This document shows, one piece after another, positions 1,074 to 47,505 of a stretch of DNA of 64,000 nt; position 1 is the stretch's first letter, and every line of letters begins with the position of its first letter. The position numbers and the translations under genes were made by a program. The notes below the pieces were generated by a model. The model did no database searches. It was not told the origin of the DNA and was given only the letters and a program-made list of their open reading frames with translations. Source of the DNA: a virus; IMG/VR virus record IMGVR_UViG_3300028840_001747, positions 40,926 to 104,925 of that record. The stretch is one strand, 5' to 3'.

Positions 1074-2783
1074 TTATCCATTATCAAATGTCACGGTTAA
1101 TTGTGTCAAATAATCCGTATTCGATGTATCATTAAATCTTACCATTAAAACTAATGGATTACTATTCGTTGTTTGTTTACCACTTGGCAATCCCCACGTT
1201 ATAGTATCTCCACTTACCGCACCATTCCTTATTCCATATATACTACCACTGTCGTCGCCAACCTCGCGTCCTAAATCATAAATACTCGACCCACTTTCGT
1301 TGGCGAGAACGAAAGCCATTTGTAAATCATCACTGCCAGACCAAACACCTACTATGTCACTCAATCCACTAAAACCATTCCTCGCAATTACTATCGTTCC
1401 ATTCTCGTTAGCATTTGTCGGTGTAAATGGACGATAATAAAACTGCTCCCCATCAGTAAATAAAACTCCACCATAACTACCCCACTTACCACTTATCAAA
1501 CGACCATTATTTACTTCCAAACGACCATCTATAAGCGTTTGTTGATTGTTCCATGAACCGGAATCAATAGCAAACCAACGTTTATCTTCATCGTCAAAAT
1601 ATTCCAGTAACACAGTACTTCTCGTCAAATATGTATTTATTGGACGATAACCAATATTTACATTAGCACTCGTTACATCACTTTTACCATCTTTTCTCAA
1701 TCTCACATTAAATGTTCCTAAATCATTATATGAAGTCTTTACATCATTACTCAATGTTATTGATTGTGTTACCGTCAAATCCCATGAATGTGTAGGAACA
1801 GTCAATGATGAAGTTGACACCGTCGTATTTGAGAAATACGAACTTTGTATTCTCGATTCATCACCATTACTATAAATAGGATTGTACAAATCTTGACCTA
1901 CATAATTTACATCAAATTGTGTTGTCCTACCATAATAATGCATTCCACTCATATATTTCCACGCAGGAGTCAACGAAGATGTATATGGATTTGTGGCAAA
2001 TGACTGATTTGGAAAATGATCAGCATTCGTTCCTACAAAATACATCGTTGTTACATCACTCTCTCCTGCACTATTGTCCGCTAACATCTTATATCTATAT
2101 GATCCCGTACTAACAAATGTTCCTGTTATCTCAGCATTTACTTTCAACCAAATGTTACTATATGTCGATATATCTGTTATATTTATTCCACCTGTCGCCC
2201 CAACTCCACTCGATAAGGCTCTCTCACCAAATGAAATGAAGTTTTGTTGACTTCCACTTGATACTGAAGCAGACACTCCACCAACTATACTGGCGAAACT
2301 GGCAGAAGTTCCACCAGTAAATGTATCACTTTGATCAGGTGATACTAATACAATAGCATTAGCAGAATCATCGTTTGATAATGTTGTTAAATTATCACCT
2401 GGTGACGCAAATGAATACCACGATCCACTTGTTAACCCAGCAGAAAGATAACCACTAAATAAACTTGGCGAACTTAAAGTTAAATCTTGTCCCGTTAACG
2501 CTTCGGGACTACTTGGAGCTATTTGTAATAATAATTCATTTACATCGTCAAACGCATTTGGTATTCTCGTATCAGGTGTCCAATAACTAAAATATCCATC
2601 CGTATAAGTTCCGTCATCTGGATTTCCTATTGTACCACTACCTTGTATCGCAACCACATTCAACGCATCGGCTATCGACATCGAAGGATTTAGGGCGCCA
2701 ATGTTATACCCGCCTGCGGTCGGTATACCTGCTTGTAAATCACTTCCACTTACTCTTAATTGTTTTGGATATATTAGTGCCAT
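1074..2783 (-). CDS. Structural protein, probable fibre or baseplate component
   Basis: 569 residues, rich in Ser, Thr, Gly and Asn, without transmembrane segments or signal peptide. It opens with MALIYPKQLRVSGSDLQAG and has many short beta-strand-like stretches with the SGS/GSG turns seen in the other fibre proteins of this genome, for example 38294-41152. No enzyme motif is visible and there is no capsid-type leader. It begins one base inside the end of the preceding small gene and is followed after 13 bases by the partial fibre gene, so the three are probably co-transcribed. Assignment as a virion surface protein is inferred from composition and context only. Confidence 0.6.
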   Translation of the reverse strand: MALIYPKQLRVSGSDLQAGIPTAGGYNIGALNPSMSIADALNVVAIQGSGTIGNPDDGTYTDGYFSYWTPDTRIPNAFDDVNELLLQIAPSSPEALTGQDLTLSSPSLFSGYLSAGLTSGSWYSFASPGDNLTTLSNDDSANAIVLVSPDQSDTFTGGTSASFASIVGGVSASVSSGSQQNFISFGERALSSGVGATGGINITDISTYSNIWLKVNAEITGTFVSTGSYRYKMLADNSAGESDVTTMYFVGTNADHFPNQSFATNPYTSSLTPAWKYMSGMHYYGRTTQFDVNYVGQDLYNPIYSNGDESRIQSSYFSNTTVSTSSLTVPTHSWDLTVTQSITLSNDVKTSYNDLGTFNVRLRKDGKSDVTSANVNIGYRPINTYLTRSTVLLEYFDDEDKRWFAIDSGSWNNQQTLIDGRLEVNNGRLISGKWGSYGGVLFTDGEQFYYRPFTPTNANENGTIVIARNGFSGLSDIVGVWSGSDDLQMAFVLANESGSSIYDLGREVGDDSGSIYGIRNGAVSGDTITWGLPSGKQTTNSNPLVLMVRFNDTSNTDYLTQLTVTFDNG

Positions 2784-3130
2784 TATTTCTCAAATACCCT
2801 TTTCTTGTTGTGTACCCATTTATCCATTTGATAAATAAATCCACCATTTTCTTTTTCAATTATTTCTAATCCATAAATAGGCTCTTTTCCTGGCGTCCCA
2901 GCAAAAAATAGTCCATTATTATCTCTATCTAAATCACTTTCACCAGGTTTTAACAAGTCTGATAGCTTAGTCCAACCAATGAGATTTATTTTATTCATTG
3001 ATTCAAGTCGCCATTGTTCCCACTTTTTATCAATAATATTATTCGGGGCATGCGACCACGCTAATTCGCCCATCGCCATGTCGGTTTCCGCATTGGATAC
3101 TTCCTTTAATAATTTCTTTAAACTAATCAT
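2783..3130 (-). CDS. Small protein with capsid-type leader
   Basis: 115 residues starting MISLKKLLKE, the short amphipathic leader ending in L-x-E that recurs in this genome and resembles T4 capsid-targeting sequences. The rest (residues 11-115) is soluble, charged, with NGLFFAGTPGKEPIYGLEI in the middle; I do not recognise the family. It overlaps the genes on both sides by a single base. Predicted cleavage by the prohead protease would be after Glu10. Packaging in the head is an inference from the leader; the body gives no hint of activity. Confidence 0.7.
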   Translation of the reverse strand: MISLKKLLKEVSNAETDMAMGELAWSHAPNNIIDKKWEQWRLESMNKINLIGWTKLSDLLKPGESDLDRDNNGLFFAGTPGKEPIYGLEIIEKENGGFIYQMDKWVHNKKRVFEK

Positions 3131-3489
3131 TAATATTCTATCTTTTTCATTACAAATTTATATTTTGGATTTTTTCTTTCTACTTTCTTTACATATTTCT
3201 CAGGTACATCAACATTAGATAACCCTAACATAAATGTATCTGTATCTTGATACCGTTCCCAAGCAATATATCCCTTTCTACTATCTAATGGAATATCTAA
3301 CCATTGAGATAAATGTAAATGTAATGTTTTCCACGCATCGTCAACAACATATAAATCTCCGTTAGGCATACTCATTCCTCTCAACCCAGGTTCCATTCTT
3401 CTAATAGATTTAGGGTTTTTATATACGTCAAATTCATCGAAAATTTGACCAATTAAATCTTCTTTTATTAATTTTTTTAACTTAATCAT
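3130..3489 (-). CDS. Leader-bearing YKNPKS-family protein, paralogue 1
   Basis: 119 residues. Leader MIKLKKLIKE, identical to those of 44143-44592 and 44597-45043, with which the whole protein is homologous: all three have V/IYKNPKS(I/V)(R/K)RM, then (L/I)(R/K)G(M/L/V)S.P.G(D/N)(L/F)YV(V/M)D, a KGYI.W segment, and a C-terminal KNP.(Y/L)KF. The family looks like a small one-domain protein of 100-140 residues; similar YKNP-type domains occur in phage polyvalent proteins, but I cannot give a function. This copy lies 41 kb from the other two, inside the neck/fibre region. The start overlaps the stop of the upstream gp15-like gene as ATGA. Packaging is inferred from the leader. Confidence 0.75.
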   Translation of the reverse strand: MIKLKKLIKEDLIGQIFDEFDVYKNPKSIRRMEPGLRGMSMPNGDLYVVDDAWKTLHLHLSQWLDIPLDSRKGYIAWERYQDTDTFMLGLSNVDVPEKYVKKVERKNPKYKFVMKKIEY

Positions 3490-9869: not shown

Positions 9870-11507
9870 TTAAACTTGATCAATATGACCCACATATATC
9901 TTCCCGTAAAATTCTGGCCTTACGATTTTCTTCGCGTAACGAGTCATAACGCCTCTGCGAGGAGTAAAATTATCAGGATCATAAATCAATGGAGTCATAA
10001 TAAGTGGAATGTAAGGTGAATACACAGCACCAGTTTCCAAGAAATTACTTCCTCTAAATCCGACCAAAGCGATATTTTCAGTAAGGTAAGGATTTTTGTA
10101 AACGGTGAAACGTGAATTCAACATACCAACTTTTTGTACACCCATTGCGAATGATTGTTGGTTTCCATCAGTATCAGCAGCATATCCAGGAATAGATTCA
10201 ATAACGGTAGCAACGTCAGGACTAACAACGATGAAGTTAGCTCCACCGCGAAGTGTTAATTGATGAATTTTGTTACTTACTTTTTGAATCTTATTTCCAA
10301 GAGTTTGATACCATTCATTCTTTGTACCAGTATGAGAACCAGCATCATAGAAATTGGTTTTACCATTGTTAATTTCATATCCAGGAAGAGCTGACCAGTA
10401 ATCAGTAGTAATAGCGTTAGAAATAAGCATGTCAAGGATTTCTAAGTCAATTTCCATTCCAATATATTCACTCAAGAGAGCAGTTAACTCAGCTTCAGCG
10501 TCAATAGAGTGATATGCGTTCAAGTCTTGAGCCAATTCAGGAGTCCAAATAGCTTTCAACTTACGAGTTTTGGCGACGATAGGTTCTTGAGCAACCGACA
10601 AGTCGATTTCAGGAATATCAAGTTTAACAAGACTTCCAGACTCAGAAGTATCTTCGAAGTCACCACGAGTATCAGCAGTAGGTTGTTTGTGATAACGAAT
10701 ATCATATTCACTTGCTGAGAAGTTAGCGAATGCAGCAGCACTACCAGAAACGATCCATCTTACTGTAGCACCAACTTGAGTTGTGTAAGCAGACAAATAA
10801 GATTGAATACCACTACCACTAACAGAAAAAGCACGAACACCTTCGACATCAAGGTCAGATAAGTTACCAGTGTTATATGAAAGAGCGAAAAGTGTACCGG
10901 CAGCCATAGAAGCACTAATATGACCATCGTCAAAACCAACATCAGCCCATGTGACAGAAGCAGTAGCGAAAGCGTCACCACTTGGAGTAGTATCAAGATC
11001 AGCAGTTCCGCCATATCCATAATCATTAATTGAGTATCCGAAACGTCCACCACCGTAAAGACCACCAGTAGCTTCATCAGTCGTTCCAGGAGTTTTACCA
11101 CCACCAGTTCCACCAAAAACAGATTGATTTTGGGTAAAACCAGGTTGTGTACCACTACCATACTTAAAGTCAATGTAAAATACAAGACCGGATGGTAAGT
11201 TCATAGGTTGAATCGATACGAATTCTTTAGCGGCAACTTCACCGAAAATTCTACGTACCAAAGGAAGAGCGACACCAGACCATTGTTCAGCACCACTACC
11301 ACCAGTTTGAGAAACTTCGTCCAATAATTGGCGAGCTTGATTCTCTAATAGAATAGCCATTCCATAAATTTCATGTTCTTCGTTCATACCATCAAGAAGA
11401 CCTGTTGGCTCCCATTTTTTCACGAGTCCACGAGTTTGCTCTAAAAGAGCATCATATGGATTTTGACCTTCCATTAATTTGTTTAAATTAAATAAGGTTT
11501 TACTCAT
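9870..11507 (-). CDS. 23: Major capsid protein (gp23-like)
   Basis: 545 residues (T4 gp23: 521). The N-terminal propeptide is followed by QWSGVALPLVRRIFGEVAAK and SIQPMNLPSGLVFYIDFKYG, the classical gp23 entry into the HK97-type fold; the C-terminus has ENIALVGFRGSN, YSPYIPLIMTPL and RRGVMTRYAKK, as in other gp23. A Gly-rich insertion around residues 110-165 (GGTGGG, GGLYGGGRFG) and a long beta insertion to ~residue 290 are extra. Residues 61-64 read LLDE followed by VSQTGG: this fits the [LI]-x-E cleavage rule of the gp21 protease and the position of T4 gp23 processing (after residue 65). It follows the scaffold gene after 30 bases without a promoter motif and has a strong terminator. Confidence 0.94.
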   Translation of the reverse strand: MSKTLFNLNKLMEGQNPYDALLEQTRGLVKKWEPTGLLDGMNEEHEIYGMAILLENQARQLLDEVSQTGGSGAEQWSGVALPLVRRIFGEVAAKEFVSIQPMNLPSGLVFYIDFKYGSGTQPGFTQNQSVFGGTGGGKTPGTTDEATGGLYGGGRFGYSINDYGYGGTADLDTTPSGDAFATASVTWADVGFDDGHISASMAAGTLFALSYNTGNLSDLDVEGVRAFSVSGSGIQSYLSAYTTQVGATVRWIVSGSAAAFANFSASEYDIRYHKQPTADTRGDFEDTSESGSLVKLDIPEIDLSVAQEPIVAKTRKLKAIWTPELAQDLNAYHSIDAEAELTALLSEYIGMEIDLEILDMLISNAITTDYWSALPGYEINNGKTNFYDAGSHTGTKNEWYQTLGNKIQKVSNKIHQLTLRGGANFIVVSPDVATVIESIPGYAADTDGNQQSFAMGVQKVGMLNSRFTVYKNPYLTENIALVGFRGSNFLETGAVYSPYIPLIMTPLIYDPDNFTPRRGVMTRYAKKIVRPEFYGKIYVGHIDQV

Positions 11508-16507: not shown

Positions 16508-16520
16508 ATTTTATCTCCTA

Positions 16521-17081: not shown

Positions 17082-17094
17082 TTAATTTCTCCAT

Positions 17095-34368: not shown

Positions 34369-37167
34369 TTACCCAAATTTAATAGAACCAAGTATTTGAT
34401 TTATAGGGGCAAACGTTCCGGTCAACTTATAAAGTTTATCCTTATACATAAATGTAATTCCTTCAGTTGGCACTATAGCATCAAATCCACCGATTGCATT
34501 CAATCTATCAAGTTGTACTTTCAACTTTTCCATCTTCTTTACATCATTCGCCGTTTCAAGTTCCTTTATCGTAGAGTCCAATTCTTTCTTCATTCGTTGT
34601 TGTGACGATTCTGGGGCGACCGCAAGAAATTCATTCAAATTCTTTAACACCTGAGCACCTAACTCCAAAAATAATAATTCAAATGGTTGTAAATTCTTCT
34701 TAACTTGAACAGCATGTTTCGTCTTGTCATACTTTAACGCCCAATCCAAAAACTTCTTGTCGTCTATTTCCTTTTTCATATCGTTGACCTTGTATGACTT
34801 GTCATTGTACGCCCAACGTTTTATCAAATTCGTCAATACACTGTTTGGAAGTTTATATTTCTTCTTTTTCGCCTCTTTTGTAATAAAATCTTCCCACCAT
34901 TTTTGATGATACATAATGATTAAATCACTATCTTTTAATCCATATTTACTTTTTAACTTATTTAACCTATTATTGAACTTCGATTTTTGTTTTGAAAAAT
35001 CTTGTGACTTTGGTAATGTGATAATTGGATTTTTTGAAAGTTTGAAATTCTCTTGAACCTCTTGATTTATTTGACGTATCATTCCATCTAACATTCTCGC
35101 TGATTCAGTACTTCCGCCCACAGGATTTCCATCTTCATCATATTCAATCGATCCGTGAAAGATTAAAATAGGAAAATCATAAGGTACTACATTCGTTGTT
35201 GCTGGATAAACTACTTCAATGTTCATGAAATTTTTACCTTCATCAAATACTTTTCTTCGTTGTTTTTCACTCAACTTTGATATAGCATTTTCCATATCTT
35301 TCATAGCAAATGTAAACGCATCATGAATCGCACCACGTCCGGCAAACATATCACTTATTTGTTGTGTCGTAAGGGCTTCCGCTCCAAAATTTTTGATGTG
35401 TCCTTTGTTTCTTGCAGCGATTAATTTTCCATCTTTCCACGAAACCATAATGTTTTGACCATCTATTTTTTCTTGTACATTTTCAAGGCTTCCCTCAAGA
35501 GCCGTATCAATCATTGTTTTTAAGTCGCCAAAAGTTAAATCCCAATCATCAAATGGATGGGCAAGATGTCCAAACGCACCGCCTTCATTCAATACTTGTT
35601 TGTCGGTCATTACATTGTTTGTCCACCATTCTTTTGAAAAAATACTTTCCTCTAATGGTTGTGATGCGTCACTCGTATCTTGTACTAATGGTTCATGAGT
35701 CGCCATTTCTTTCTTTGGATCATCGATGATATTATCTTTCTTCTTATCACCTAATAACCAATCAACTACCTCATATCCCAAACGATTGGCGATGTGATCC
35801 ATGTGTGATTTGTATTTCGCTATTGGATCAGGATAAGTTGTGTCTCTTACTCCCACGTCACCAAATGAAACATCACTTACATGATCATATTTATATCTTT
35901 GATCAGCATATTCCTCTTTATCACCAGCTAAATAATCTACAATCTGCCATCCTAACTTGCCAGTTATTTCGTCCACGTCTCTATGATAATTGTTTGGATG
36001 TTTATAGAATGTGGCTGGCCCGTCGTCAACGGAAGCATCATCCGCTTGAGTTACCTCAAGTAATAGTTGTTTTACATTTACTTCACTTAAAAAATCCTCT
36101 ATTACGCTTGTCGCCAAGATTACACTCTCACTAAGTTTATTCGTGATCAAATCAAATGTTTTTTGATCAAATTTTCCATAAAGTTTTTTGTATAAAGCTT
36201 TCTTTCCCTTTTCACTTAATTGATCACTACCAAATAAATTTCTTAGTTGTGTTCCACTTATATTCTTTCCTGCTACATCTATCTTGAGTATAGGAGCAGT
36301 AATGTAATAACCCTCTTGATCAAATCCTTTTACATTTTTTCCGGTCCACGGTTTAAAATATTTTCCACCAAGGCGACCAGCATCTTTTTCACTAAATACC
36401 GTCACATAAGCAGTTTTACTTGGATCATATTTCTTTTTAATTTCTACAGGATTAAATGGATTTTTTACTTTAACTATATTACCCTTTGGTATATCAAAGT
36501 TTTTAGAAATTATTTGTTTCTTTTCCATAAAGTTAAAAGGCGATCTTCCTGGCTCAACTTTATCAGATGTACCGATAAAAGTATTCTTCTTTCCAAACTT
36601 TTTCGCTAATAAATCATACATAGAATAATGACCTTTATGAAATGGTTGAAATCGACCTGCAGTTACAGCAACTACGTCCTTTACTTCGTTTTCTTCCTCT
36701 TTCACTACCATTTTCTTCGGATTCGCCAACCATGAATCATTACCAAATCTACCCTCTCCAAGTTGTGAAGCACTATCATCAAAAGTCGTTAACGCTTGTT
36801 CTAATGGTAAATCTACTTTCGTTACTGGAATGGTGTAATCGTCGCCATGTACTTCTTTATAGGCTAACCATCTATGATGTCCATCAAGTATCTTTCCCTC
36901 TTTTGATACAAATAAAGGATGTGTTACCCAATCAGTTTCCTGTATTTTCTTTTTTAAACTCTCAAGTTTCTCCGGTATATAATCTTCTTGAGTCGGTTTT
37001 AAATCACTACATTTAGCATTTCCTTGTTCATATCCAATATCATTTTCATCAAAGATTTTCAATACCTCGTCCACATCCTTGCCCTTGACCTGAGGCATAT
37101 CTTTCCTCTCGATCTCTTGTATCATTTCTAAAATTATCGTTTCACTAAACTTCTTTATGTTATCCAT
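34369..37167 (-). CDS. Leader-bearing ParB-like / NMN-adenylyltransferase / nucleic-acid-ligase fusion
   Basis: 932 residues. 1-18: leader DNIKKFSETIILEMIQE. ~25-130: ParB/sulfiredoxin-like part with LDGHHRWLAYKE (94-105). ~164-345: nucleotidyltransferase of the NMNAT/cytidylyltransferase type, AGRFQPFHKGHYSMYDLL (170-187, the G-x-F-x-P-x-H-x-G-H motif) and ISGTQLRNLF (303-312). ~350-371: DFLSE and QLLLE joints. ~385-475: two copies of a ~60-residue unit (ITGKLGWQIVDYLAGDK, IANRLGYEVVDWLLGDK). After VLNE/GG (528): covalent nucleotidyltransferase of the RNA/DNA ligase class with EKIDGQN (566-572, Lys567 as the adenylated residue), RNKGHI, FMNIEVVYP and, near the end, PTEGITF and KLYKLTG. Activities would be NAD synthesis plus end joining. 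Joints end in [LV]-x-E, so it may be cut into separate enzymes in the head. Confidence 0.8.
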   Translation of the reverse strand: MDNIKKFSETIILEMIQEIERKDMPQVKGKDVDEVLKIFDENDIGYEQGNAKCSDLKPTQEDYIPEKLESLKKKIQETDWVTHPLFVSKEGKILDGHHRWLAYKEVHGDDYTIPVTKVDLPLEQALTTFDDSASQLGEGRFGNDSWLANPKKMVVKEEENEVKDVVAVTAGRFQPFHKGHYSMYDLLAKKFGKKNTFIGTSDKVEPGRSPFNFMEKKQIISKNFDIPKGNIVKVKNPFNPVEIKKKYDPSKTAYVTVFSEKDAGRLGGKYFKPWTGKNVKGFDQEGYYITAPILKIDVAGKNISGTQLRNLFGSDQLSEKGKKALYKKLYGKFDQKTFDLITNKLSESVILATSVIEDFLSEVNVKQLLLEVTQADDASVDDGPATFYKHPNNYHRDVDEITGKLGWQIVDYLAGDKEEYADQRYKYDHVSDVSFGDVGVRDTTYPDPIAKYKSHMDHIANRLGYEVVDWLLGDKKKDNIIDDPKKEMATHEPLVQDTSDASQPLEESIFSKEWWTNNVMTDKQVLNEGGAFGHLAHPFDDWDLTFGDLKTMIDTALEGSLENVQEKIDGQNIMVSWKDGKLIAARNKGHIKNFGAEALTTQQISDMFAGRGAIHDAFTFAMKDMENAISKLSEKQRRKVFDEGKNFMNIEVVYPATTNVVPYDFPILIFHGSIEYDEDGNPVGGSTESARMLDGMIRQINQEVQENFKLSKNPIITLPKSQDFSKQKSKFNNRLNKLKSKYGLKDSDLIIMYHQKWWEDFITKEAKKKKYKLPNSVLTNLIKRWAYNDKSYKVNDMKKEIDDKKFLDWALKYDKTKHAVQVKKNLQPFELLFLELGAQVLKNLNEFLAVAPESSQQRMKKELDSTIKELETANDVKKMEKLKVQLDRLNAIGGFDAIVPTEGITFMYKDKLYKLTGTFAPINQILGSIKFG

Positions 37168-37168: not shown

Positions 37169-37723
37169 TTATTTTCCTACTTTTTGATACAACTTATCTT
37201 TTATCTTTGGATTTATTTCTATCTTTTTCGCCTCTAAATAATCCAAGGCTTTCTTGTATTTTAATTGTTGTTTTGGTGAAGGCTTATCACTCAAGTTGTC
37301 CTCTAAATCTAATAACTTTATATCAAACGCGGTTGGCGACATCTTAGCCAATTTGTAAAGATATGTAGAATAATCTATACCTTTATCATGTGACATAATC
37401 GTTACTAACTTAGCAATCGTTCCACCAAATAACTCTTTTATCCTCTTTAGAGTCCTTTGTGGATTTTTAGAATCTTCATACGTATCATGTAATATAGCAA
37501 GAATTTGATGTTTCTTTGATAACCCTCTCTTTTTTGCGCGGTGATACACCCGCATTGGATGTACCATATAGGGCAACGGAGATTTCTTTCTCCATTGACC
37601 GGAATGAACGTCACGAGCTAAATCAATAGCTTGTGTGACTTGATCTATTTCTACTAACGCAATATTGAAACGAAAGTCGTCATATTCTTCGCTTATTAAT
37701 TGACGTATCGATTCTCTTAACAA
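37169..37723 (-). CDS. Leader-bearing Mesh1/SpoT-type (p)ppGpp hydrolase
   Basis: 184 residues. Leader MLRESIRQLISE (Glu12), then an HD-fold domain of Mesh1 size. All metal and substrate positions known for Mesh1 can be placed: His40 in DVHSGQWRKKSPLPYMVHP, His79-Asp80 and Glu83-Asp84 in ILHDTYED, Asp139 and Asn143 in KLLDLEDNLSD. The domain lacks any synthetase part, so hydrolysis of the alarmone (or of NADPH, which Mesh1 also attacks) is the expected activity. Because of the leader I infer it is packed in the head and injected, where it could switch off the stringent response at once. It follows the fibre-side gene by 12 bases and lies one base before the ligase fusion. Confidence 0.82.
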   Translation of the reverse strand: MLRESIRQLISEEYDDFRFNIALVEIDQVTQAIDLARDVHSGQWRKKSPLPYMVHPMRVYHRAKKRGLSKKHQILAILHDTYEDSKNPQRTLKRIKELFGGTIAKLVTIMSHDKGIDYSTYLYKLAKMSPTAFDIKLLDLEDNLSDKPSPKQQLKYKKALDYLEAKKIEINPKIKDKLYQKVGK

Positions 37724-41595: not shown

Positions 41596-42453
41596 TTATT
41601 TTACTTTCATCTTTTTTAGTCGCCTTTTTAAGGCAAATCTATAATCATCTTTCTTTACCCACGTTCCTTTGATTGGCGATTTTCCTGAAGGCTCCCATTT
41701 GAAGTATAATAATCTATCAACTACTCCATCATCTTTTTGACCATCAGCAACATAATTGTGAAACGCATTACTCATTTCTTTAGCATAGTTTACTATAATA
41801 GGAACACCTACGCTACGTCCTTCATGTTCCTTTCTCCATTGATCACGCTGTATCGCTAACTCCGGAGATATGTGTAAACAAATAATCGTATTATGAAACC
41901 CTTTCTCTTTTGTTTTTTCTAATCGGGCTAACATCTTGTCAGATTTAGCACCGACAGTATCAATGATTAAAATATTTCCTGCACTCACTATTTTTGTTTT
42001 GAATAAATCTTTTTCTTTAGATTTCGCCAAATCTCGTATGTCAAAATATGTGGCATAATACGGCCTATAAAATGACTTATAAAAATATCGTAATCCCTTT
42101 TTACCATTCATTTGCCACCACTCAAATGTTAAAGGAAATACTACTTTTTTTCCATCATTATCTTTATATTGAGTTTGTTTTACAAAAAGATCAATGTCTT
42201 GTGGCGATCCTTTAGATTTTTCCAACCAATTAAAATGTTTCTTCGCCGTTTCATACTGGGCAGCTAAAACTTGTTTGTCCGAATTAGTCACCTTATATCC
42301 ACTAAAACCGGGAATATATCTCGTTATCTCATTATTAATGAATGTAGATTTTCCGGCGCCAGGAAGCCCCATGAGAACAATACATTGTTTTCCAATGTCC
42401 TCTTTGAACTCATTGAGAACTTCATTTATCAACTCTCGTATTAGTTCCCGCAT
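41596..42453 (-). CDS. Leader-bearing P-loop kinase (zeta-toxin/PNK-like)
   Basis: 285 residues from the ATG at 42453 (GGGGAATAAT before it; a second ATG four codons upstream forms that ribosome site and is less likely). Leader MRELIRELINEVLNE with sites I-N-E and L-N-E. Then CIVLMGLPGAGKSTFIN (Walker A, residues ~29-38), a distal NILIIDTVGAKSD strand, and CLHISPELAIQRDQWRKEHE with an Arg-rich lid. The fold matches small-molecule or nucleic-acid kinases of the zeta-toxin/polynucleotide-kinase group; the substrate cannot be read. With the leader, it is a candidate packaged kinase alongside the ligase and phosphatase genes, so an injected RNA or DNA repair set is conceivable. Confidence 0.72.
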   Translation of the reverse strand: MRELIRELINEVLNEFKEDIGKQCIVLMGLPGAGKSTFINNEITRYIPGFSGYKVTNSDKQVLAAQYETAKKHFNWLEKSKGSPQDIDLFVKQTQYKDNDGKKVVFPLTFEWWQMNGKKGLRYFYKSFYRPYYATYFDIRDLAKSKEKDLFKTKIVSAGNILIIDTVGAKSDKMLARLEKTKEKGFHNTIICLHISPELAIQRDQWRKEHEGRSVGVPIIVNYAKEMSNAFHNYVADGQKDDGVVDRLLYFKWEPSGKSPIKGTWVKKDDYRFALKRRLKKMKVK

Positions 42454-42464
42454 ATTATTCCCCA

Positions 42465-42692
42465 TTATCTATTATATTTTTCACGATATTTAGCATGTAA
42501 AAATGCTATATACATTGATCCACTACCACCAGTATTACTTACCGTCATTCCATCAAGAATATACCCACCAGAAATTAAATCAGTTAATTCCTCAGAAAAA
42601 CTTCCTGCTCCATTCAAAGTAGCATTGGATATTGTTGCGGTTGTGAAGTCACTTGCAGCATCATATGATCCTGTTTGAAAAGTTATCGACAT
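42465..42692 (-). CDS. Small Ser/Gly-rich structural protein
   Basis: 75 residues: MSITFQTGSYDAASDFTTAT, then SNATLNGAGSFSEELTDLIS and GGSGSMYIAFLHAKYREKYN. Beta-rich, no leader, composition like the virion surface proteins of this genome. It sits between two leader-bearing enzymes. GGAGAATAATA precedes the ATG. Function unknown. Confidence 0.55.
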   Translation of the reverse strand: MSITFQTGSYDAASDFTTATISNATLNGAGSFSEELTDLISGGYILDGMTVSNTGGSGSMYIAFLHAKYREKYNR

Positions 42693-42694: not shown

Positions 42695-44143
42695 TTATTC
42701 TCCTATTGTTTTATACATTCTATCTGTTATAGCAAAAGCTTGTTTTTTCGTCAATCCGGGATTTCCTAACAACTCACTATCTATTGCTTTTAATAATTGT
42801 CCTATTATCATCCCGTGTGTTTTATTATTTATTTTATATCGTTTCATTATATCATTTCCATCTATCGGGCGTTTCAGCACATCTGGCTCACTTTCAAGGG
42901 CTTTCAATCTATCCTTCAACTTTGGGATTTGTAACGGCATATTATAATCATCCGCATGACTTATATTGTCAGCATGAATTAAATCCAATGTTGTTTGTAA
43001 GTGATCTTTCATATCATTTTTTAACTTCCTCAAAGTCTTATCAGTTACTCCCTCACTCTCTCCACCATATTGTTTTGTCCTCATATGATTTTGTATAGCT
43101 TTTTTAACCTTAATGACAACTTCTTTTGGATATTTTAATCGTCGTAAAATAGCTTCCGCCATTTCCGCACTCACATCTTCGTGTTCGTAAAAATGAACTT
43201 CGTTATCAACTACCTTTTTGGTTGTCGCCTTTCCAATGTCGTGAAATAGGGCGGCGAGGCGAGTCTCTAACTCAGGTGGAGTATTCTTCAATACTTCCAA
43301 TGTGTGCTTCATTGCGTCAAATTTGTGATACTTATTTTGTTCTAATCCCTTCAACTCGTCTAACTCATGAGCAACATACTTATTCAAGTTAGTCATTTGT
43401 AATAAACGAACCGCTTTGTCAGGAGCTTTACTTATCATCATTTTACTTAACTCACTCATTACCCTCTCAGCACTTATCGTCTTTAACATATGTGAGTTAC
43501 GCTTTAACGCTTTGATCATGAACATAGGTAAATCCCAACCATACTTTACGGTAAACCGGATCGCTCTTAACATCCTCAATGGATCATCTTTGAAGATGAC
43601 ATCAGGATCTAATGGAGTTTGGACAACACCTTTCTTTAGATCAGTTTTACCCATTCCTGTAAGATCAAGGATTTCGCCAGTCGTTAAATCTTTCAGGAGT
43701 GAGTTTACTGTAAAGTCTCGGCGTTCAACGTCATCCTTCAGGGATCCTGGAGAAACCTTTGGTTTTCTATCTCCAAGTTTATATTGTTCCTTACGAGTCA
43801 TTACGGCTTCAATCTCAATCTTACTCAAATCATATCCTTTATGATTCACTCCATATAAACGAAACGCAGCAGTACCGAATTTAGGATATACAACAGGATT
43901 CGAACCTTTCTTGTATATCTTTAGTTCCTTTGTAATCCACTCGGCAAACTTTATTCCACCTTGCGGAAACTCGATAACAATGTCTATGTCCTTTGGATTA
44001 AGACCGAGTAACTCGTCTCTTACATATCCACCTGCAAGAAATACTTTTCCTTTCCACTTTGATTTCTTTACCATTTTAGAAAGAAAATCTACCGCAGCTC
44101 GATCTATCGCTCCCTCTTGTAATAAGTTTTTTAGTTTAATCAT
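42695..44143 (-). CDS. cca: Leader-bearing CCA-adding tRNA nucleotidyltransferase with HD domain
   Basis: 482 residues. Leader MIKLKNLLQE (Glu10/Gly11). Class II nucleotidyltransferase head: VFLAGGYVRDELLGLNPKDI (34-53) with the catalytic DIDIV, then DDVERRDFTVNSLLKDL, VIFKDDPLRMLRAIRFTVKY and the EDD/R-type template region. C-terminal HD phosphohydrolase domain with AALFHDIGKATTK and FYEHEDVSAEMAEAILRRLK, as in gamma-proteobacterial Cca. Role: repair or completion of tRNA 3' ends, possibly against host tRNA-cleaving defence. The leader predicts that the enzyme is carried in the head, which would be unprecedented to my knowledge. The stop overlaps nothing; the start overlaps the previous stop by one base. 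Confidence 0.9.
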   Translation of the reverse strand: MIKLKNLLQEGAIDRAAVDFLSKMVKKSKWKGKVFLAGGYVRDELLGLNPKDIDIVIEFPQGGIKFAEWITKELKIYKKGSNPVVYPKFGTAAFRLYGVNHKGYDLSKIEIEAVMTRKEQYKLGDRKPKVSPGSLKDDVERRDFTVNSLLKDLTTGEILDLTGMGKTDLKKGVVQTPLDPDVIFKDDPLRMLRAIRFTVKYGWDLPMFMIKALKRNSHMLKTISAERVMSELSKMMISKAPDKAVRLLQMTNLNKYVAHELDELKGLEQNKYHKFDAMKHTLEVLKNTPPELETRLAALFHDIGKATTKKVVDNEVHFYEHEDVSAEMAEAILRRLKYPKEVVIKVKKAIQNHMRTKQYGGESEGVTDKTLRKLKNDMKDHLQTTLDLIHADNISHADDYNMPLQIPKLKDRLKALESEPDVLKRPIDGNDIMKRYKINNKTHGMIIGQLLKAIDSELLGNPGLTKKQAFAITDRMYKTIGE

Positions 44144-44592
44144 TAAAATATTCTCTTTAATATAAATTTATATTGTGGATTTTTTTGTTGAACTTTCTTT
44201 ACACTTTTTTTAAGATATTTCATTAATTGCATTTCTTTAAACCAATCAACATCAGGATAAGTTGATTCACTCAAATAAAATGTATTAGAATCACCTTTTC
44301 TTTGCCAGTAAATATATCCCTTTTTAATCATGTCGCCAAACGCTTTCGGCCAATTCCGTGTATCCCAATCAGCAGACTTATCCTTTGTATGACCCTTATT
44401 TTTTAACCATCTTTCTAAATCCATATGAATAGCAAAATATTGATCGTCCATTACATATAAATTACCTTGTGGATCGCTCAATCCTCTCAATGCAGGCGCC
44501 ATACGTTTTATGGATTTGGGATTTTTGTATACTTCTATACTACCAAGATTACCAAGTAATTCTTCTTTTATTAATTTTTTTAGTTTAATCAT
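44143..44592 (-). CDS. Leader-bearing YKNPKS-family protein, paralogue 2
   Basis: 149 residues. Leader MIKLKKLIKEELLG, then the family core: VYKNPKSIKRMAPALRGLSD, PQGNLYVMDDQYFAIHMDLE, KKGYIYWQRKGDSNTFYLSE and a KNPQYKFILKRIF end. It is closest to the adjacent paralogue 44597-45043 (both have TFYLSES/KFYLSES) and further from 3130-3489. Tandem duplication with conserved leader. No catalytic signature seen. Confidence 0.72.
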   Translation of the reverse strand: MIKLKKLIKEELLGNLGSIEVYKNPKSIKRMAPALRGLSDPQGNLYVMDDQYFAIHMDLERWLKNKGHTKDKSADWDTRNWPKAFGDMIKKGYIYWQRKGDSNTFYLSESTYPDVDWFKEMQLMKYLKKSVKKVQQKNPQYKFILKRIF

Positions 44593-44596
44593 AATT

Positions 44597-45043
44597 TTAC
44601 CAATATGGTGGCTCAGGTATAAACTTCAAGCCAGGATTTTTCGCCTTTATTTTCGGTATATGCTGTTTTATTATCTTTTGGTATTCCTTCCAATCATATC
44701 CGCCATCTTGCATTACCACATTGACAGATTCACTCAAATAAAACTTATTCGTATTTCCGTTACGTATCCAACCAATGTAACCTCTTTTCATTCCTTTCGC
44801 TATTTTATCCATGTAATAAAATATTTCAGATGGAATTTTTACTCCAAATGGTTTTAGGTATTTCTCTATATCTGCGTGAATTATATTGTAATAATCAACT
44901 ACATAAAAATCTCCACTTGGAACACTAACACCTTTTATATCATCATCCATTCGTTTTACACTTTTAGGATTTTTATATATCTCATATCCATCTTTAGTTG
45001 TTCCTACAAAATCCTCTTTTATTAATTTTTTTAGTTTAATCAT
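44597..45043 (-). CDS. Leader-bearing YKNPKS-family protein, paralogue 3
   Basis: 148 residues from the ATG at 45043, chosen for AAGGAGTTTGGCG before it and because it starts directly with the leader MIKLKKLIKEDFVG. Family core: IYKNPKSVKRMDDDIKGVSV, PSGDFYVVDYYNIIHADIEK, KRGYIGWIRNGNTNKFYLSE, and a KNPGLKFIPEPPYW end. It overlaps the stop of the polyprotein-like gene by eight bases. Function unknown; packaging inferred. Confidence 0.72.
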   Translation of the reverse strand: MIKLKKLIKEDFVGTTKDGYEIYKNPKSVKRMDDDIKGVSVPSGDFYVVDYYNIIHADIEKYLKPFGVKIPSEIFYYMDKIAKGMKRGYIGWIRNGNTNKFYLSESVNVVMQDGGYDWKEYQKIIKQHIPKIKAKNPGLKFIPEPPYW

Positions 45044-46793
45044 CGCCAAACTCCTTCTTTCCATATCTCGCTGATTGTGGTTTTCTTATCATAAACTCAC
45101 TCTTGTATACTTTTATTGGACGTTTTTCAACAGACTCGGCGAAAATTACGATGTCGTCTAATAATTTCTTGTGTCGTTGTAATGATTTTTTGGTAGCAGT
45201 AAATCCTATTTCCCCTTTTCTACCGGAAATTCTTACCCAACCGTCCTTCATCGCTTCGTTGATAACCGCTTCATATATTATAGACCACTCATTAGCATCA
45301 GCATGAGCTAATCGAGATTTGAATGGCTTAAACTTACCTACATTTTTTACTAACCAATCAACGTGTTCTAATTCCGGAACAGCATGAACTTGACCCTTTG
45401 GATCAACTAAACCATTTCTACCTTTAGCAATTTTTACCAACTCGTCCGATTGATCTTCATATAAAATAATTATTTCACGTATCAAATCTTTGAATCTAAT
45501 TACTCCATCACCTAAACCCTTACGCATTCTATGACGAGCTGCGGCAGGAAGTTCGCCTTTCTTGGCGCCCCGTACATCTTTCTTCGATCCCATTCCTTTA
45601 GGTACTTGCTTGTCCTTTTTAAGCATTGGTGAAACCGCATGAGATTTTCCCTTTCCAACTTGTTTTTCACTTCCTTGATAATCTTCTAACGGTATTAATT
45701 TTTGAGCCGTTCCTGCAGGAAAATCATCCCACGCGCCCCAGCGTTTATCTTTTGGATCATATATTTTTCCACCTTTATCTAAAATTTCTATCTTATATCC
45801 ATTATTCCAAATCTTTATCGTTTTTCCATGTTCTTCTTTAAATGCATCTTCAATCTTAGATACAATAGATTTCATTTGGTTCTTTTTTGGAAATTCCCAG
45901 AATGTAATAACTTTCTTTTTATACCAAAGGCGACCCGGAAATTTCAATGATTTTCGTGATAACCAACCATCTGGCGATTGCATGTCTCCGTGTGTATATC
46001 CTTCACTACCGACATACATTTTATTTTTCCACATACCAAAAGGTACGGCATTTCTATGCCATTCTAAATTATATTTTCCTATACTTACTCCATCAGGATT
46101 TTCTAATAATAATTCTCCAAGTTTTATTGTTCCATCACCTAAACCTTTACGAATACGATGTCTGGCAGCAGCAGGTGTCTCTCCCTTTCGTTGTCCTTTT
46201 ACCTTTTTCTTTGATCCCATGCCCATAGGAACTTCGCGTCTACCTTTCTTGAGTAACGGAGATTTCATATGTGAGATTTCTTTACCACGTTGTTTTTGAC
46301 TTCCCTCATACTTCTCTATTGGAATTAACATCAAATCACCTTGTACATCGTATGCATCCCATGAAGGCTCTCTCGGATCGTCTTCTCGTGAATCCGGACG
46401 ATATATTTTTCCACCTTTATCTATTACCTCTACTTGCCATCCGTTATTCCAAATCTTTAACCCTGACCCACGTTCTAACTTAGATATAATACTCTTGATT
46501 TGATTTTGTTTTGGAAATTCCCAAAATGATATGACTTTATCCTCGGCCCATAACCTACCGGGATATTTGTAATCTCCCCGCAAATATGGGAAATCATCAT
46601 AATCTTTTTCCTTTATTTCGCCACGATCTAATAAATGATCACGGATCGCGAAATGAACTCCACCAGGATCACTGAAATAGGCTTTACCTTTGTGTATTCC
46701 AAATGCGTGAGCGTCACCTTCAGTATAACTTAAACGTGTATTACCTACATATACACCATCAGGGTTCTCTCTCAACAATTTTTTTAGTTTCAT
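45036..46793 (-). CDS. Three-module leader-bearing protein (cargo polyprotein candidate)
   Basis: 585 residues built of two homologous modules and a third unrelated one, each opened by a leader. Module 1 (1-~221) starts MKLKKLLRE/NPDGVYVGN; module 2 (~222-430) starts IKLGELLLE/NPDGVSIGK; module 3 (~431-585) starts IRFKDLIRE/IIILYED. Modules 1 and 2 share (V/I)I(S/T)FWEFPK, a GGKIY segment, IP(I/L)E.Y.GS.KQ.GK and identical linkers of the type GETPAAARHRIRKGLGDG. Module 3 has GRNGLVDPKGQVHAVPELEH and ends KSEFMIRKPQSARYGKKEFG; DPKGQVHAVP resembles the DPQGNLYVMD element of the YKNPKS family. Repetition of the leader at each border argues for cleavage after L-R-E9, L-L-E231 and I-R-E440. Confidence 0.75.
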   Translation of the reverse strand: MKLKKLLRENPDGVYVGNTRLSYTEGDAHAFGIHKGKAYFSDPGGVHFAIRDHLLDRGEIKEKDYDDFPYLRGDYKYPGRLWAEDKVISFWEFPKQNQIKSIISKLERGSGLKIWNNGWQVEVIDKGGKIYRPDSREDDPREPSWDAYDVQGDLMLIPIEKYEGSQKQRGKEISHMKSPLLKKGRREVPMGMGSKKKVKGQRKGETPAAARHRIRKGLGDGTIKLGELLLENPDGVSIGKYNLEWHRNAVPFGMWKNKMYVGSEGYTHGDMQSPDGWLSRKSLKFPGRLWYKKKVITFWEFPKKNQMKSIVSKIEDAFKEEHGKTIKIWNNGYKIEILDKGGKIYDPKDKRWGAWDDFPAGTAQKLIPLEDYQGSEKQVGKGKSHAVSPMLKKDKQVPKGMGSKKDVRGAKKGELPAAARHRMRKGLGDGVIRFKDLIREIIILYEDQSDELVKIAKGRNGLVDPKGQVHAVPELEHVDWLVKNVGKFKPFKSRLAHADANEWSIIYEAVINEAMKDGWVRISGRKGEIGFTATKKSLQRHKKLLDDIVIFAESVEKRPIKVYKSEFMIRKPQSARYGKKEFGDD

Positions 46794-46990
46794 TACTTGA
46801 TCTCTCTTGATAGTTTAGCTATATCAATCATATATGGTTTTAACATTTCTAAAGCTTTCTTATATGTCTCAGGATCTTTATCCTTTAACGCTCTCTTAAT
46901 AAGTGATAAAGATAATTCGGCTTTTTGATTTATCACTTTTATATGACCTTTCGCCTTTCCACTTACCAAATCTTTTAATTTAGGTATCAT
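46793..46990 (-). CDS. Small helical protein with leader-like start
   Basis: 65 residues from the ATG at 46990, which overlaps the stop of the HAD gene as ATGA and is preceded by AAGGAGTTAGGACT lying inside that gene. Product starts MIPKLKDLVSGKAKGHIKVI, a leader-like helix without the final Glu, and continues NQKAELSLSLIKRALKDKDP with a helical end. Function unknown. Confidence 0.55.
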   Translation of the reverse strand: MIPKLKDLVSGKAKGHIKVINQKAELSLSLIKRALKDKDPETYKKALEMLKPYMIDIAKLSREIK

Positions 46991-47505
46991 AGTCCTAACT
47001 CCTTGAGTTTCTTTATCGTTGATGAGGCAGACTTGTGTAAAATCCCAATTCCACCACGTGCCTTCCATTGTTTTATATTTTCATCCATATCGTCAATCAA
47101 TATAGCATCTTTCTTAGCAAAATCTTGTTTATCTCTCGCCCGTCGAAGTATCAACTCAACATTACCAAGATTACCCTTGACCCACATATGCTTGCCACGT
47201 GGGCTCTCAGGTATTGTCCTTGCAGGAGCGGATAAAATTTTTACATTCTTGTTCTTGATGTAATCCCATAATTTTTTACCGTCCTTCATCCAAGGCATTT
47301 CACTCCAATACTTGAGTCCACCTTTACCGATTTCGCTCCAAAAGGCTTCCGTTCCCTCTTTCTTCTCATATTTTCGACCATCTTTTATTCCAGTAAAATT
47401 CTCAAGTTGTTTGTCGAAATCAGTAAGTACGCCATCCATATCACAATAAACGGTATACTTATATTGATAAATATATTCTTTTATTAGTTTCGATAATTTA
47501 AGCAT
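46987..47505 (-). CDS. Leader-bearing HAD-family phosphatase
   Basis: 172 residues. Leader MLKLSKLIKE (Glu10), then a small HAD domain: VYCDMDGVLTDF (19-30, nucleophile Asp22 and acid Asp24), a cap with EAFWSEIGKGGLKYWSEMPW, VKILSAPARTIPESPRGKHM (motif II Ser and following), KKDAILIDDMDENIKQWKAR (motif IV DD). It resembles 5'-nucleotidase or polynucleotide 3'-phosphatase type HADs; the substrate is open. Together with the P-loop kinase and the ligase module it could complete an end-healing set, all three with leaders. It overlaps the M15 peptidase stop by eight bases. Confidence 0.75.
   Translation of the reverse strand: MLKLSKLIKEYIYQYKYTVYCDMDGVLTDFDKQLENFTGIKDGRKYEKKEGTEAFWSEIGKGGLKYWSEMPWMKDGKKLWDYIKNKNVKILSAPARTIPESPRGKHMWVKGNLGNVELILRRARDKQDFAKKDAILIDDMDENIKQWKARGGIGILHKSASSTIKKLKELGL

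What the first reader, a model, noticed from the sequence alone, without database searches (positions are those of the whole stretch)
2783..47505. A capsid-targeting-type leader on about twenty unrelated proteins: a large predicted packaged proteome
Seen: genes at 2783, 3130, 12855, 13479, 18951, 19617, 20569, 20833, 21042, 25095, 26511, 29851, 34369, 37169, 41596, 42695, 44143, 44597, 45036 and 46987 all start with a 9-20 residue amphipathic helix ending [LIVM]-x-E (MIKLKKLIKE, MLKLSKLIKE, MKLKKLLRE, MIKLKNLLQE, MRELIRELINE, MLRESIRQLISE, MDKKTWNKILNE). The bodies are unrelated. Replication genes, endolysin, fibres and neck proteins lack it. Known: in T4, internal proteins and Alt carry a short N-terminal capsid-targeting sequence ended by [LI]-x-E and cut by gp21. 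Inference: the leaders send cargo into the prohead, are removed by the gp21 homologue (18326-18934), and the cargo is injected. T4 has a handful of such proteins; here the set is several times larger and includes enzymes.
Basis: partly seen in the sequence, partly recalled or inferred. Interest (0 to 1): 0.96.

Follow-up and report, generated by a model that had tools for sequence, protein, structure and literature searches.

The report
Phage packing-tag on twenty proteins
A little-known phage puts the same kind of short, probably removable address tag on about twenty different proteins, most likely to load them into its head for delivery into the next bacterium; in distantly related phages, enzymes with such a tag have already been reported in purified virus particles.

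Summary
All 20 listed genes have [LI]-x-E in residues 1-20 and 17 fit a tighter pattern. Without that list, 22 of 102 contig genes fit, 3.3 expected by shuffling. Best reading: a T4-type capsid-targeting sequence. The MIKLKKLIKE class has hydrophobic residues at 4, 7, 8 and Glu at 10 like T4 IPIII, and a gp21-type protease is present. Three phages without that protease show no excess; 5 of 9 with it do, while RM378, Mel-JY01, P-SSM2 and G004 do not clearly. In cyanophage S-CREM2 the pattern marks 6 of 26 virion-detected non-structural proteins against 4 of 170 other genes; the virion-detected cytidylyltransferases of S-SM1 and S-CREM2 start MKKFSAFLNE and MKNFSSFLTE, and window gene 34369 belongs to that family. 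New: a 585-aa protein with three tandem tag-plus-body units, and relatives' chains of exchangeable modules joined by ESVNE spacers. Packaging, cleavage and injection in this phage are inferred. A new, enlarged variant of a known system.

The parts
18326..18934 (-). gp21-type prohead protease (Peptidase S77), 202 aa; H76 and S129 align with T4 gp21 H85 and S140; own N-terminal LAE site
   Evidence: PF03420 E 1.8e-31; alignment and numbering
2783..3130 (-). leader MISLKKLLKE + body of unknown function
3130..3489 (-). leader MIKLKKLIKE + body paralogous to 44143 and 44597
12855..13172 (-). leader MERLKEIIKEEVNKFLNE (several sites) + small body LYHGTT..., ADP-ribosyltransferase-like by eye only
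   Evidence: no Pfam or PHROG family, no significant PDB match
13479..13781 (-). leader MKKEQWNKILNENTLITE + unknown body
18951..19607 (-). leader MKRSRLNEIIKEEVQNFLLNE + unknown body, beside the protease
19617..19994 (-). leader MKISKDRIKEIIREE + unknown body
   Evidence: relatives L005, L006 keep it
20569..20823 (-). leader MDKKTWNKILNENTL, identical to that of 20833, unrelated body
20833..21042 (-). leader MDKKTWNKILNENTL + unknown body
21042..22166 (-). loose match MANLNESDIRELIRTMIEQE; body holds ESVNE and KLEEGIINE spacers
25095..25454 (-). Glu-9 variant leader MIKLKQLME
26511..26786 (-). loose match MKLFDILE...ILGE + very basic body
29851..30378 (-). leader MDIQRIREIIIEE
34369..37167 (-). 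leader MDNIKKFSETIILEMIQE + 932-aa cytidylyltransferase-family protein, same PHROG as virion-detected cyanophage enzymes
   Evidence: PF01467, phrog_395 E 5e-12
37169..37723 (-). leader MLRESIRQLISE + HD phosphohydrolase
   Evidence: PF13328 E 3.9e-7, phrog_990 E 1.5e-26
41596..42465 (-). leader MGNNMRELIRELINE + zeta-toxin/P-loop kinase-like protein
   Evidence: PF06414 E 1.6e-6
42695..44143 (-). leader MIKLKNLLQE + CCA-adding/poly(A) polymerase-like nucleotidyltransferase; leader kept in diverged orthologues
   Evidence: PF01743 E 1.3e-19, PDB 9ns4 E 3e-28
44143..44592 (-). leader MIKLKKLIKE + paralogue body; model has a short helix at 4-10, mean pLDDT 74 (residues 1-7 under 50)
44597..45043 (-). 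leader MIKLKKLIKE + paralogue body (start taken at the inner ATG)
45036..46793 (-). 585 aa with three leader+body units: MKLKKLLRE (1-9), IKLGELLLE (223-231), IRFKDLIRE (432-440)
46101..46127 (-). internal leader 2 of 45036 (IKLGELLLE), no start codon there (ACA ATA)
45474..45500 (-). internal leader 3 of 45036 (IRFKDLIRE), no start codon there (GTA ATT)
46987..47505 (-). leader MLKLSKLIKE + 5'(3')-deoxyribonucleotidase
   Evidence: PF06941, phrog_2643 E 5.3e-25, profile position 6 at residue 16
33426..33692 (-).
14696..16507 (-). 603-aa polyprotein-like chain with ESVNE, ESTMNE, ESVEE and ENTLVTEE spacers; shares a module with 16521
16298..16312 (-). ESVNE spacer in 14696 (residues 66-70)
16521..17784 (-). 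16521 and 17095: share a KLDEG-headed module (60% over 85 aa); 17095 itself starts MKLDEG
29163..29840 (-). 225 aa; inner leader MKMTRTQLVELIKEVLQEE at residue 80 resembles the N-terminus of stand-alone proteins in relatives (by eye); an inner start (GGAG then ATG) is possible
32500..33429 (-). 309 aa; inner leader RERLYEIIVEE after an ATG at residue 181; an inner start is possible
9870..11507 (-). gp23-like major head protein, N-terminus with KLME|G
   Evidence: phrog_138 E 2.8e-70

Best explanation
The leaders are T4-type capsid-targeting sequences of a distant, T4-related phage lineage. A short amphipathic helix at the N-terminus binds the prohead core, carries the attached body into the head, and ends in a site (hydrophobic, any residue, Glu) at which the phage's own gp21-type protease cuts during head maturation, leaving the body free inside the DNA-filled head; on infection the bodies enter the cell with the DNA. 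The leader is a portable module on late genes: it sits on small unknown proteins and on whole enzymes (cytidylyltransferase family, CCA-type nucleotidyltransferase, HD phosphohydrolase, P-loop kinase, deoxyribonucleotidase). Shown: the leaders, their excess and position, the protease, and their conservation on orthologues; and, from published lists, leader-bearing enzymes in purified virions of two other phages, one enzyme family being shared with the window. Inferred: targeting, cutting and injection in this phage.
For: Anatomy tested without asking for the Glu: of 38 distinct proteins starting M[ILV][KR][LM] in protease-bearing loci and genomes, residue 7 is hydrophobic in 38, residue 8 in 37, Glu is at 10 in 26 and at 9 in 5; 0 of 373 genes of three protease-less phages start so. 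T4 IPIII: residues 4 and 7 matter for targeting, 8 and 10 for processing (PMC9026906, passages); T4 IPII and IPIII start MKTYQEFIAE. Protease PF03420 E 1.8e-31 with aligned H and S. Controls without S77: phi14:2 3 of 113, crAss001 1 of 99, T5 6 of 180, all at the shuffled level. Late-region bias in G001: 22 of 101 vs 3 of 83. CCA-like orthologues at 50-62% identity keep M[IL]K[LM]xxL[LV]xE in five leader versions, the window's included. Virion data: S-CREM2 6 of 26 detected non-structural proteins vs 4 of 170 other genes, p = 4.5e-4 (6 of all 52 detected, p = 0.012); 3 of 4 detected enzymes. S-SM1 T4-GC190, reported in virions (PMC3037559, passages), starts MKKFSAFLNE, the only R hit among the 33 of 45 annotated features that I translated there. 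Window 34369 is in the same PHROG.
Against: No virion or cleavage data were found for this phage or its near relatives. The S-CREM2 authors themselves say that such enzymes may be highly expressed and not separated from the virions (passage). The pattern is not specific: large-terminase orthologues of relatives match it (LKEIIAEEYKKCA) though T4 terminase is not a head internal protein (recalled). Protease-bearing RM378 shows no excess (4 of 154, z -0.6); Mel-JY01 (z 1.0), P-SSM2 (z 1.5) and G004 genome-wide (z 1.7) little. In T4 only 4 of 19 R hits (IPII, IPIII, gp24, gp68) are known gp21 substrates, and IPI, Alt, gp22 and gp67 are missed. In S-CREM2, 20 of 26 detected non-structural and all 24 detected structural proteins lack R, and two of the six hits (ORF156, ORF165) look weak. 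In S-SM1 the neighbouring SSM1_191, also annotated cytidyltransferase, does not fit R. One of the two 34369 orthologues outside G001, L191, does not fit R (MSIKQLSKYIAEQ). G001's early part still has a mild [LI]-x-E excess at residues 7-13 (2.0-fold; controls 1.4; late part 5.5), and over whole proteins early and late G001 genes do not differ (1.27 and 1.29).
Confidence: 0.78

Rival explanations
1. The leader targets proteins to the head core but is not cut: a docking helix retained in the virion.
For: Targeting and cutting are separable in T4 (an Asp at position 10 still targets, PMC9026906 passages). Some listed leaders fit the tighter pattern only loosely (21042, 25095, 26511).
Against: Glu is at the position expected from T4 in 26 of 38 proteins chosen without regard to it; 11 of the 20 leaders carry two or more [LI]-x-E sites in residues 1-20, as giant-phage propeptides do (PMC9026906 passages).
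Confidence: 0.11
2. The leaders are traces of gene duplication: an old family whose first stretch survived while bodies diverged.
For: 3130, 44143 and 44597 are real paralogues; leader codons are more alike than codon usage predicts (0.65 vs 0.48 over 18 distinct genes).
Against: Bodies match unrelated Pfam families (nucleotidase, HD hydrolase, P-loop kinase, nucleotidyltransferases), and a third of identical leader residues use different codons. Copying may well spread the leader, but does not explain why it is kept.
Confidence: 0.04
3. The leader is a membrane-binding or other cell-localisation helix, or an RNA-level translation signal, unrelated to the capsid.
For: It is amphipathic and sits at the start codon; virion detection of enzymes elsewhere could be contamination (PMC10665884 passage).
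Against: No excess in three phages without the protease; the protein pattern is kept while codons vary; leader-bearing enzymes were reported in virions of two phages.
Confidence: 0.05
4. Much of the set is chance: [LI]-x-E is common in Lys/Glu/Leu-rich N-termini.
For: R has a background of about 2-5% per internal stretch, and several hits in T4, P-SSM2 and T5 look random.
Against: Excess of about 6.5-fold on the contig and 7-fold by family in relatives.
Confidence: 0.02

Closest known systems
T4 capsid-targeting sequence (IPI, IPII, IPIII, Alt) and gp21 processing
   Same: 10-residue class with hydrophobic 4, 7, 8 and Glu 10; [LI]-x-E end; shared leader on unrelated bodies; S77 protease
   Different: Here about 20 genes, Lys-rich helices (MIKLKKLIKE, MKKSELRQIIREE in relatives, MDKKTWNKILNE) instead of MKTYQEFIAE, metabolic and RNA enzymes as bodies, often several sites per leader, and tandem units
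T-even internal proteins found by their signal sequence (at least 10 reported; PMC12373910 passages)
   Same: A variable set of injected proteins that share only the leader
   Different: Those whose function is known there are anti-restriction proteins of close T4 relatives; this lineage is distant (major head protein 51-57% to its nearest records, 39% to RM378)
Virion-associated enzymes of cyanophages (S-SM1 T4-GC190; S-CREM2 SAM hydrolase, APH/ChoK kinase, cytidylyltransferase, Cas9)
   Same: Same cytidylyltransferase PHROG; T4-like leaders MKKFSAFLNE, MKNFSSFLTE, MKDFDSFLEE, [MV]KRFDAFLTE
   Different: The S-CREM2 main text does not mention capsid targeting (0 occurrences); the link to a leader is made here
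Giant-phage (phiKZ, SPN3US) propeptides
   Same: Related protease, propeptides with several sites, packaged cargo
   Different: Sites S/A-x-E and mostly long propeptides there; short leaders ending [LIVM]-x-E here
Polyvalent proteins of phages and mobile elements (PMC5512222, passages)
   Same: Mosaic multi-domain proteins thought to be delivered with the DNA; 34369 has a weak ParB-like match
   Different: The passages I read do not describe leader-plus-body units or repeated prohead-protease-type spacers

Membership tests
T4-type capsid-targeting sequence | Short N-terminal propeptide, about 10-19 residues | tested here: met
   Glu of the first R match at residues 9-18 in the 17 R-positive listed genes
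T4-type capsid-targeting sequence | Hydrophobic residues at 4 and 7 (targeting) and 8, Glu at 10 (processing), as in IPIII | tested here: met
   Met for the M[ILV][KR][LM] class: 38/38 at 7, 37/38 at 8, 26/38 Glu10 (residue 4 is fixed by the choice). Other classes keep the spacing shifted by -1 to +8 residues
T4-type capsid-targeting sequence | Same leader on unrelated proteins | tested here: met
   20569/20833 15 of 15 identical, bodies unrelated; 18 distinct bodies with MKKSEL-type leaders in L008, L013, L015
T4-type capsid-targeting sequence | Gene for a gp21-type S77 protease in the same genome, catalytic residues kept | tested here: met
T4-type capsid-targeting sequence | Excess of the leader goes with having that protease | tested here: inconclusive
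   3 of 3 phages without it show none; of 9 with it, 5 show z of 3.8 or more (G000 and G001 not independent), 4 do not
T4-type capsid-targeting sequence | Leader-bearing protein present in purified virions | not testable with these tools
   Not for this phage. In S-CREM2 and S-SM1 published virion lists contain leader-bearing enzymes, the cytidylyltransferase family among them
T4-type capsid-targeting sequence | Cut after the Glu by the protease | not testable with these tools
   No N-terminal data held
T4-type capsid-targeting sequence | Body injected into the host | not testable with these tools
   No data
Peptidase family S77 | Pfam model over its cut-off and H/S residues | tested here: met
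   105.1 bits against a cut-off of 27; H76, S129
Giant-phage propeptides | Cleavage motif S/A-x-E and mostly long propeptides | tested here: not met
   Leaders here are short and end in [LIVM]-x-E
Polyvalent proteins | Several effector domains in one late-expressed, delivered polypeptide | tested here: inconclusive
   34369 and 45036 are multi-unit; delivery untested

The most novel reading that the evidence does not exclude
This lineage builds its packaged proteome partly from polyproteins. Leader-plus-body units are fused in one reading frame (three in 45036), and in relatives long chains of small exchangeable modules are joined by the spacer (E)SVNE, which the prohead protease cuts inside the head to release a changing set of small effectors. 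Modules are gained, lost and swapped at the spacers, so the phage edits its injected arsenal like cassettes.
Probability: 0.4. Interest if true: 0.9.

Novelty: new variant of a known kind. Interest (0 to 1): 0.77.

Why it matters
If right, the N-terminal leader lets one read a packaged, injectable proteome from sequence in many uncultured phages that encode a gp21-type protease. It gives a reason why enzymes such as a cytidylyltransferase, a SAM hydrolase and perhaps a Cas9 were reported in cyanophage virions, and singles out dozens of unknown proteins as likely first-minute effectors. The tandem units and ESVNE chains would be a cassette system for delivered proteins. A short basic leader could also serve as a cargo-loading tag.

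Tried and rejected
Rejected or weakened. The motif as a stand-alone classifier: it also picks terminase orthologues and random N-termini, so single hits are not proof. Genome-wide excess as a test in every protease-bearing phage: fails in RM378 and is weak in Mel-JY01, P-SSM2 and G004. Internal leader sites as a general feature: a strict internal pattern is not in excess over all 3612 proteins (22 against 15.5, most 25 in 20 shuffles); only particular proteins show it. S[VIL]NE spacers as a general feature: 97 against 15.9 shuffled in the protease loci, but only 3 against 1.2 in G001 late genes, 7 against 3.8 in immuto, 6 against 2.5 in T4, 3 against 5.0 in Mel-JY01 and 3 against 3.9 in P-SSM2 (controls 6 against 4.5). 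An RNA-level signal: codons vary within conserved leaders. An ADP-ribosyltransferase identity for 12855: suggested only by eye; no Pfam or PHROG family and no significant PDB match.

Led nowhere. AlphaFold2 models of unit 2 of 45036 (mean pLDDT 58) and of 44143 (pLDDT 74): no Foldseek match at E 0.001; the best VIA-align row for 44143 was a yeast RQC chain at Z 5.4, rmsd 3.9 over 97 residues, within what the tool calls common. tblastn of these two bodies in named phages: no match. Homologue scans for 12855 and 45036 found only G001. The nucleotidase 46987 had no PDB match by sequence. The paper searches for virion data on immuto or Mel-JY01 found none (listings). Literature: capsid targeting with metagenom returned 0 papers and with cyanophage 1 review; polyprotein with prohead protease returned 4 papers, of which I read passages of one, PMC5512222. 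The library holds open-licence papers only.

Full report
What the window is. The window is part (40926-104925) of a 104,925-bp IMG/VR phage record, G000. The genes considered run on the minus strand. It has a gp23-like major head protein (phrog_138 E 2.8e-70) whose nearest records are an uncultured phage (57%), Microcystis phage Mel-JY01 (54%), Flavobacterium phage immuto (51%) and Rhodothermus phage RM378 (39%). A 168,383-bp contig, G001, carries the same protease at 100% identity and supplies further genes.

The observation. All 20 listed genes have [LI]-x-E in residues 1-20, and 17 of 20 fit R = [LIVMFYW]xx[LIVMF][LIVM]xE starting at residue 1-15, against 2 of 50 other window genes (circular, since the list was chosen for the leader). 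Free of the list: 22 of 102 contig genes fit R, 3.34 expected from shuffled N-termini, most 10 in 500 shuffles; internal stretches 30 of 1181. Three classes are seen: MIKLKKLIKE-type, MKRSRLNEIIKEE-type and MDKKTWNKILNENTL-type. Two genes with unrelated bodies (20569, 20833) share 15 of 15 leader residues; three bodies (3130, 44143, 44597) are paralogues.

Is it more than one genome's habit? In 80 IMG/VR loci around relatives of the protease (80 kept of 134), 223 of 855 distinct genes fit R against 29.8 shuffled, most 42 in 50. These include orthologues and one clear false-positive family, the large terminase. Reduced to one member per family (genes of 60 aa or more, single linkage, one cluster of 144) it is 46 of 227 against 6.4, most 12 in 200 shuffles. 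In loci L008, L013 and L015 a MKKSELRQIIREE-type leader sits on 18 distinct bodies (25 genes, 7 of L015 being copies of L013's); identical leader residues share a codon in 0.65 of comparisons against 0.48 expected from codon usage, so the leader has spread by copying yet is kept as protein.

A test that does not build in the Glu. I took distinct proteins of 60 aa or more from the 80 loci, G001 late, immuto and G002 (repeats by residues 29-52, and in the loci proteins with a terminase- or protease-like pattern, dropped first). Of the 38 that start M[ILV][KR][LM], residue 7 is hydrophobic in 38, residue 8 in 37, Glu is at 10 in 26 and at 9 in 5. None of 373 genes of T5, crAss001 and phi14:2 starts that way. 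Residues 4 and 7 are the targeting and 8 and 10 the processing positions of T4 IPIII (PMC9026906, passages), and T4 IPII and IPIII start MKTYQEFIAE. [LI]-x-E with Glu at residues 7-13 is enriched over residues 30-60 by 5.5-fold in G001 late genes, 3.3-fold in the loci, 2.0-fold in G001 early genes and 1.4-fold in the controls. Over whole proteins the excess of [LI]-x-E over shuffles is 1.53 in the loci and 1.10 in controls, but 1.27 and 1.29 in early and late G001 genes, so only the N-terminal position tells them apart.

Protease and co-occurrence. The S77 protease (PF03420 E 1.8e-31) keeps GELxHP, ISSRGxGS and the D-V--PS stretch; H76 and S129 align with T4 H85 and S140 (the catalytic role of H85 and S140 is recalled). 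Of 12 phages, the three without S77 show no excess (phi14:2 3 of 113, crAss001 1 of 99 over 99,999 of its 102,679 bases, T5 6 of 180). Of nine with S77, G000 (z 10.4), G001 (7.9), G002 (4.5), immuto (4.4) and T4 (3.8) do; G004 (1.7), P-SSM2 (1.5), Mel-JY01 (1.0) and RM378 (-0.6) do not clearly. G000 and G001 share the same leader genes and are not independent. In G004 12 of its 19 hits lie among 57 genes at 240-280 kb, around the protease. In G001 the part shared with G000 has 22 of 101, the rest 3 of 83. In T4, 4 of 19 hits are known gp21 substrates and several known ones are missed.

Cargo. Bodies include a cytidylyltransferase-family protein (34369), an HD phosphohydrolase (37169), a zeta-toxin/P-loop kinase (41596), a CCA-adding-type nucleotidyltransferase (42695) and a deoxyribonucleotidase (46987). 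In the nucleotidase the PHROG profile starts soon after the leader (profile position 6 at residue 16), and the immuto orthologue has a different leader, MKKVMGNLADLLLEE. The CCA-type orthologues (8 loci: L181 is G001; L182/L183, L184/L185 and L186/L188 are near-identical pairs; L187) at 50-62% identity outside G001 all keep the leader, in five versions with the window's: MIKLKNLLQE, MLKLTELLLE, MIKMKDLVME, MIKLKQLLTE, MIKLKKLLLE. Of two orthologues of 34369 outside G001, L190 fits R (MKLANWIVDQIIKE) and L191 does not (MSIKQLSKYIAEQ). Over the protease-bearing phages and loci, 315 R-positive proteins of 55 aa or more fall into 121 body clusters, chance hits included.

Published virion data. PMC3037559 (passages) reports the cyanophage core protein T4-GC190, a putative cytidylyltransferase, in purified S-SM1 virions. 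Its gene starts MKKFSAFLNEA, the only R hit among the 33 of 45 annotated features that I translated in that stretch; the neighbouring SSM1_191, also annotated cytidyltransferase, does not fit. PMC10665884 (section with Table 3, and passages) lists 52 S-CREM2 virion proteins. R marks 6 of the 26 non-structural ones (4 enzymes and 22 hypothetical) against 4 of 170 other genes by my caller (Fisher p = 4.5e-4; 6 of all 52, p = 0.012), 0 of 24 structural and 0 of 2 endolysins. Three of 4 enzymes fit: SAM hydrolase MKDFDSFLEE, APH/ChoK kinase [MV]KRFDAFLTE, cytidylyltransferase MKNFSSFLTE; also hypothetical ORF13 MKDLHSFLTE. Two of the six (ORF156, ORF165) look weak. Cas9 has RFASFMAE at about residues 18-25, outside my rule. 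The authors warn that these enzymes might be carried over rather than packaged, and the main text does not mention capsid targeting. S-CREM2 carries S77. ORF154, PSSM2_194 and window 34369 match phrog_395 (E 2e-59, 5e-101, 5e-12).

Tandem units. The 585-aa product of 45036 has leaders at residues 1-9, 223-231 and 432-440; units 1 and 2 are alike (55%). Each inner leader follows the same junction, KGLGDG[TV], with no start codon (ACA ATA, GTA ATT). A 283-aa relative in the 292-kb phage G004 has one such body with leader MIKLKKILE and then a second leader MKLKNLIKE after KKGLGDNI and a different short body. In 29163 and 32500 inner leaders follow an ATG with a GGAG-type site, so inner starts are an alternative there.

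Polyprotein-like chains. In distinct proteins of the protease loci the spacer ESVNE occurs 43 times against 0.6 shuffled, 0 in controls; ESV[NTKSE]E has 53 distinct contexts in 38 proteins of 29 loci, followed by Ala in 19 and Gly in 13. The 18 proteins with two or more ESVxE are 223-777 aa long. Three close relatives, L027 (644 aa), L028 (777) and L029 (699), differ by whole modules that begin and end at these or similar spacers (ESVNE, ESVEE, IVNE, SVMNE, QSVNE); one slot holds nothing, module X or module Y, and module Y recurs in L030 after an ESVNE (read by eye). L072 carries as an inner part what is a separate leader-bearing gene in L071 (E 2e-8). The window has milder forms: 14696 (ESVNE, ESTMNE, ESVEE, ENTLVTEE), 21042 (ESVNE), 16521/17095 (KLDEG). 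Against it: S[VIL]NE is hardly in excess in G001 late genes (3 against 1.2) and not in Mel-JY01 or P-SSM2; Val at the first position departs from T4's [LI]-x-E; no cutting has been shown; and the spacers could be mere linkers that help recombination.

How it most likely works. Core binding by the leader helix, cutting after Glu by the S77 protease, bodies left in the head, entry with DNA. All these steps are inferred for this phage by close analogy to T4, the last being the least supported. Confidence 0.78 for capsid targeting with proteolytic removal as the function of the leader set.

Novelty. The leader principle is known from T4 and its close relatives, where sets of at least 10 such proteins were found by their signal (PMC12373910, passages). 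New here, as far as the held library shows (searches; listings): its extension to a distant lineage with about 20 genes and whole enzymes, the link to enzymes already reported in cyanophage virions, and the tandem and spacer-joined forms. I file it as a new variant of a known kind.

Noticed in passing
L027:7803-9737, L028:7405-9738, L029:6066-8165, L030:3291-5800, L031:10390-11529: Polyprotein-like chains of small modules joined by ESVNE-type spacers, with whole-module gain, loss and exchange between close relatives; not found described in one search.
   Followed up: partly
L171:7704-10313 (S-CREM2 ORF12): A Cas9 reported in virions has a T4-like leader site RFASFMAE|A at about residues 18-25, which might explain its packaging.
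   Followed up: partly
12855-13172: Body with LYHGTT...NIWLAKSKEDA looks like a tiny ADP-ribosyltransferase by eye, the activity of T4 Alt; no database support.
   Followed up: partly
3486-5611: Two adjacent paralogues (62% over 276 aa) without a leader.
   Followed up: no
14696-17784: Three neighbouring genes share modules with one another (60% over 85 aa; 35% over 75 aa).
   Followed up: partly
L108:18966-19130 (T4 gene 61.1): T4 gp61.1 starts MKTFKEFIKED, very like the IPIII leader; a possible unrecognised internal protein.
   Followed up: no
L112:270-530 and L170:13238-14959 (P-SSM2): PSSM2_115 (MKSFKQFLEEA) and PSSM2_211 (MKSLSQFIIET) have T4-like leaders on hypothetical proteins.
   Followed up: no
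L132:12566-13510: In the 292-kb phage a 314-aa protein alike by eye to window 32500 also holds an inner leader (LKLREIIREE near residue 179).
   Followed up: no
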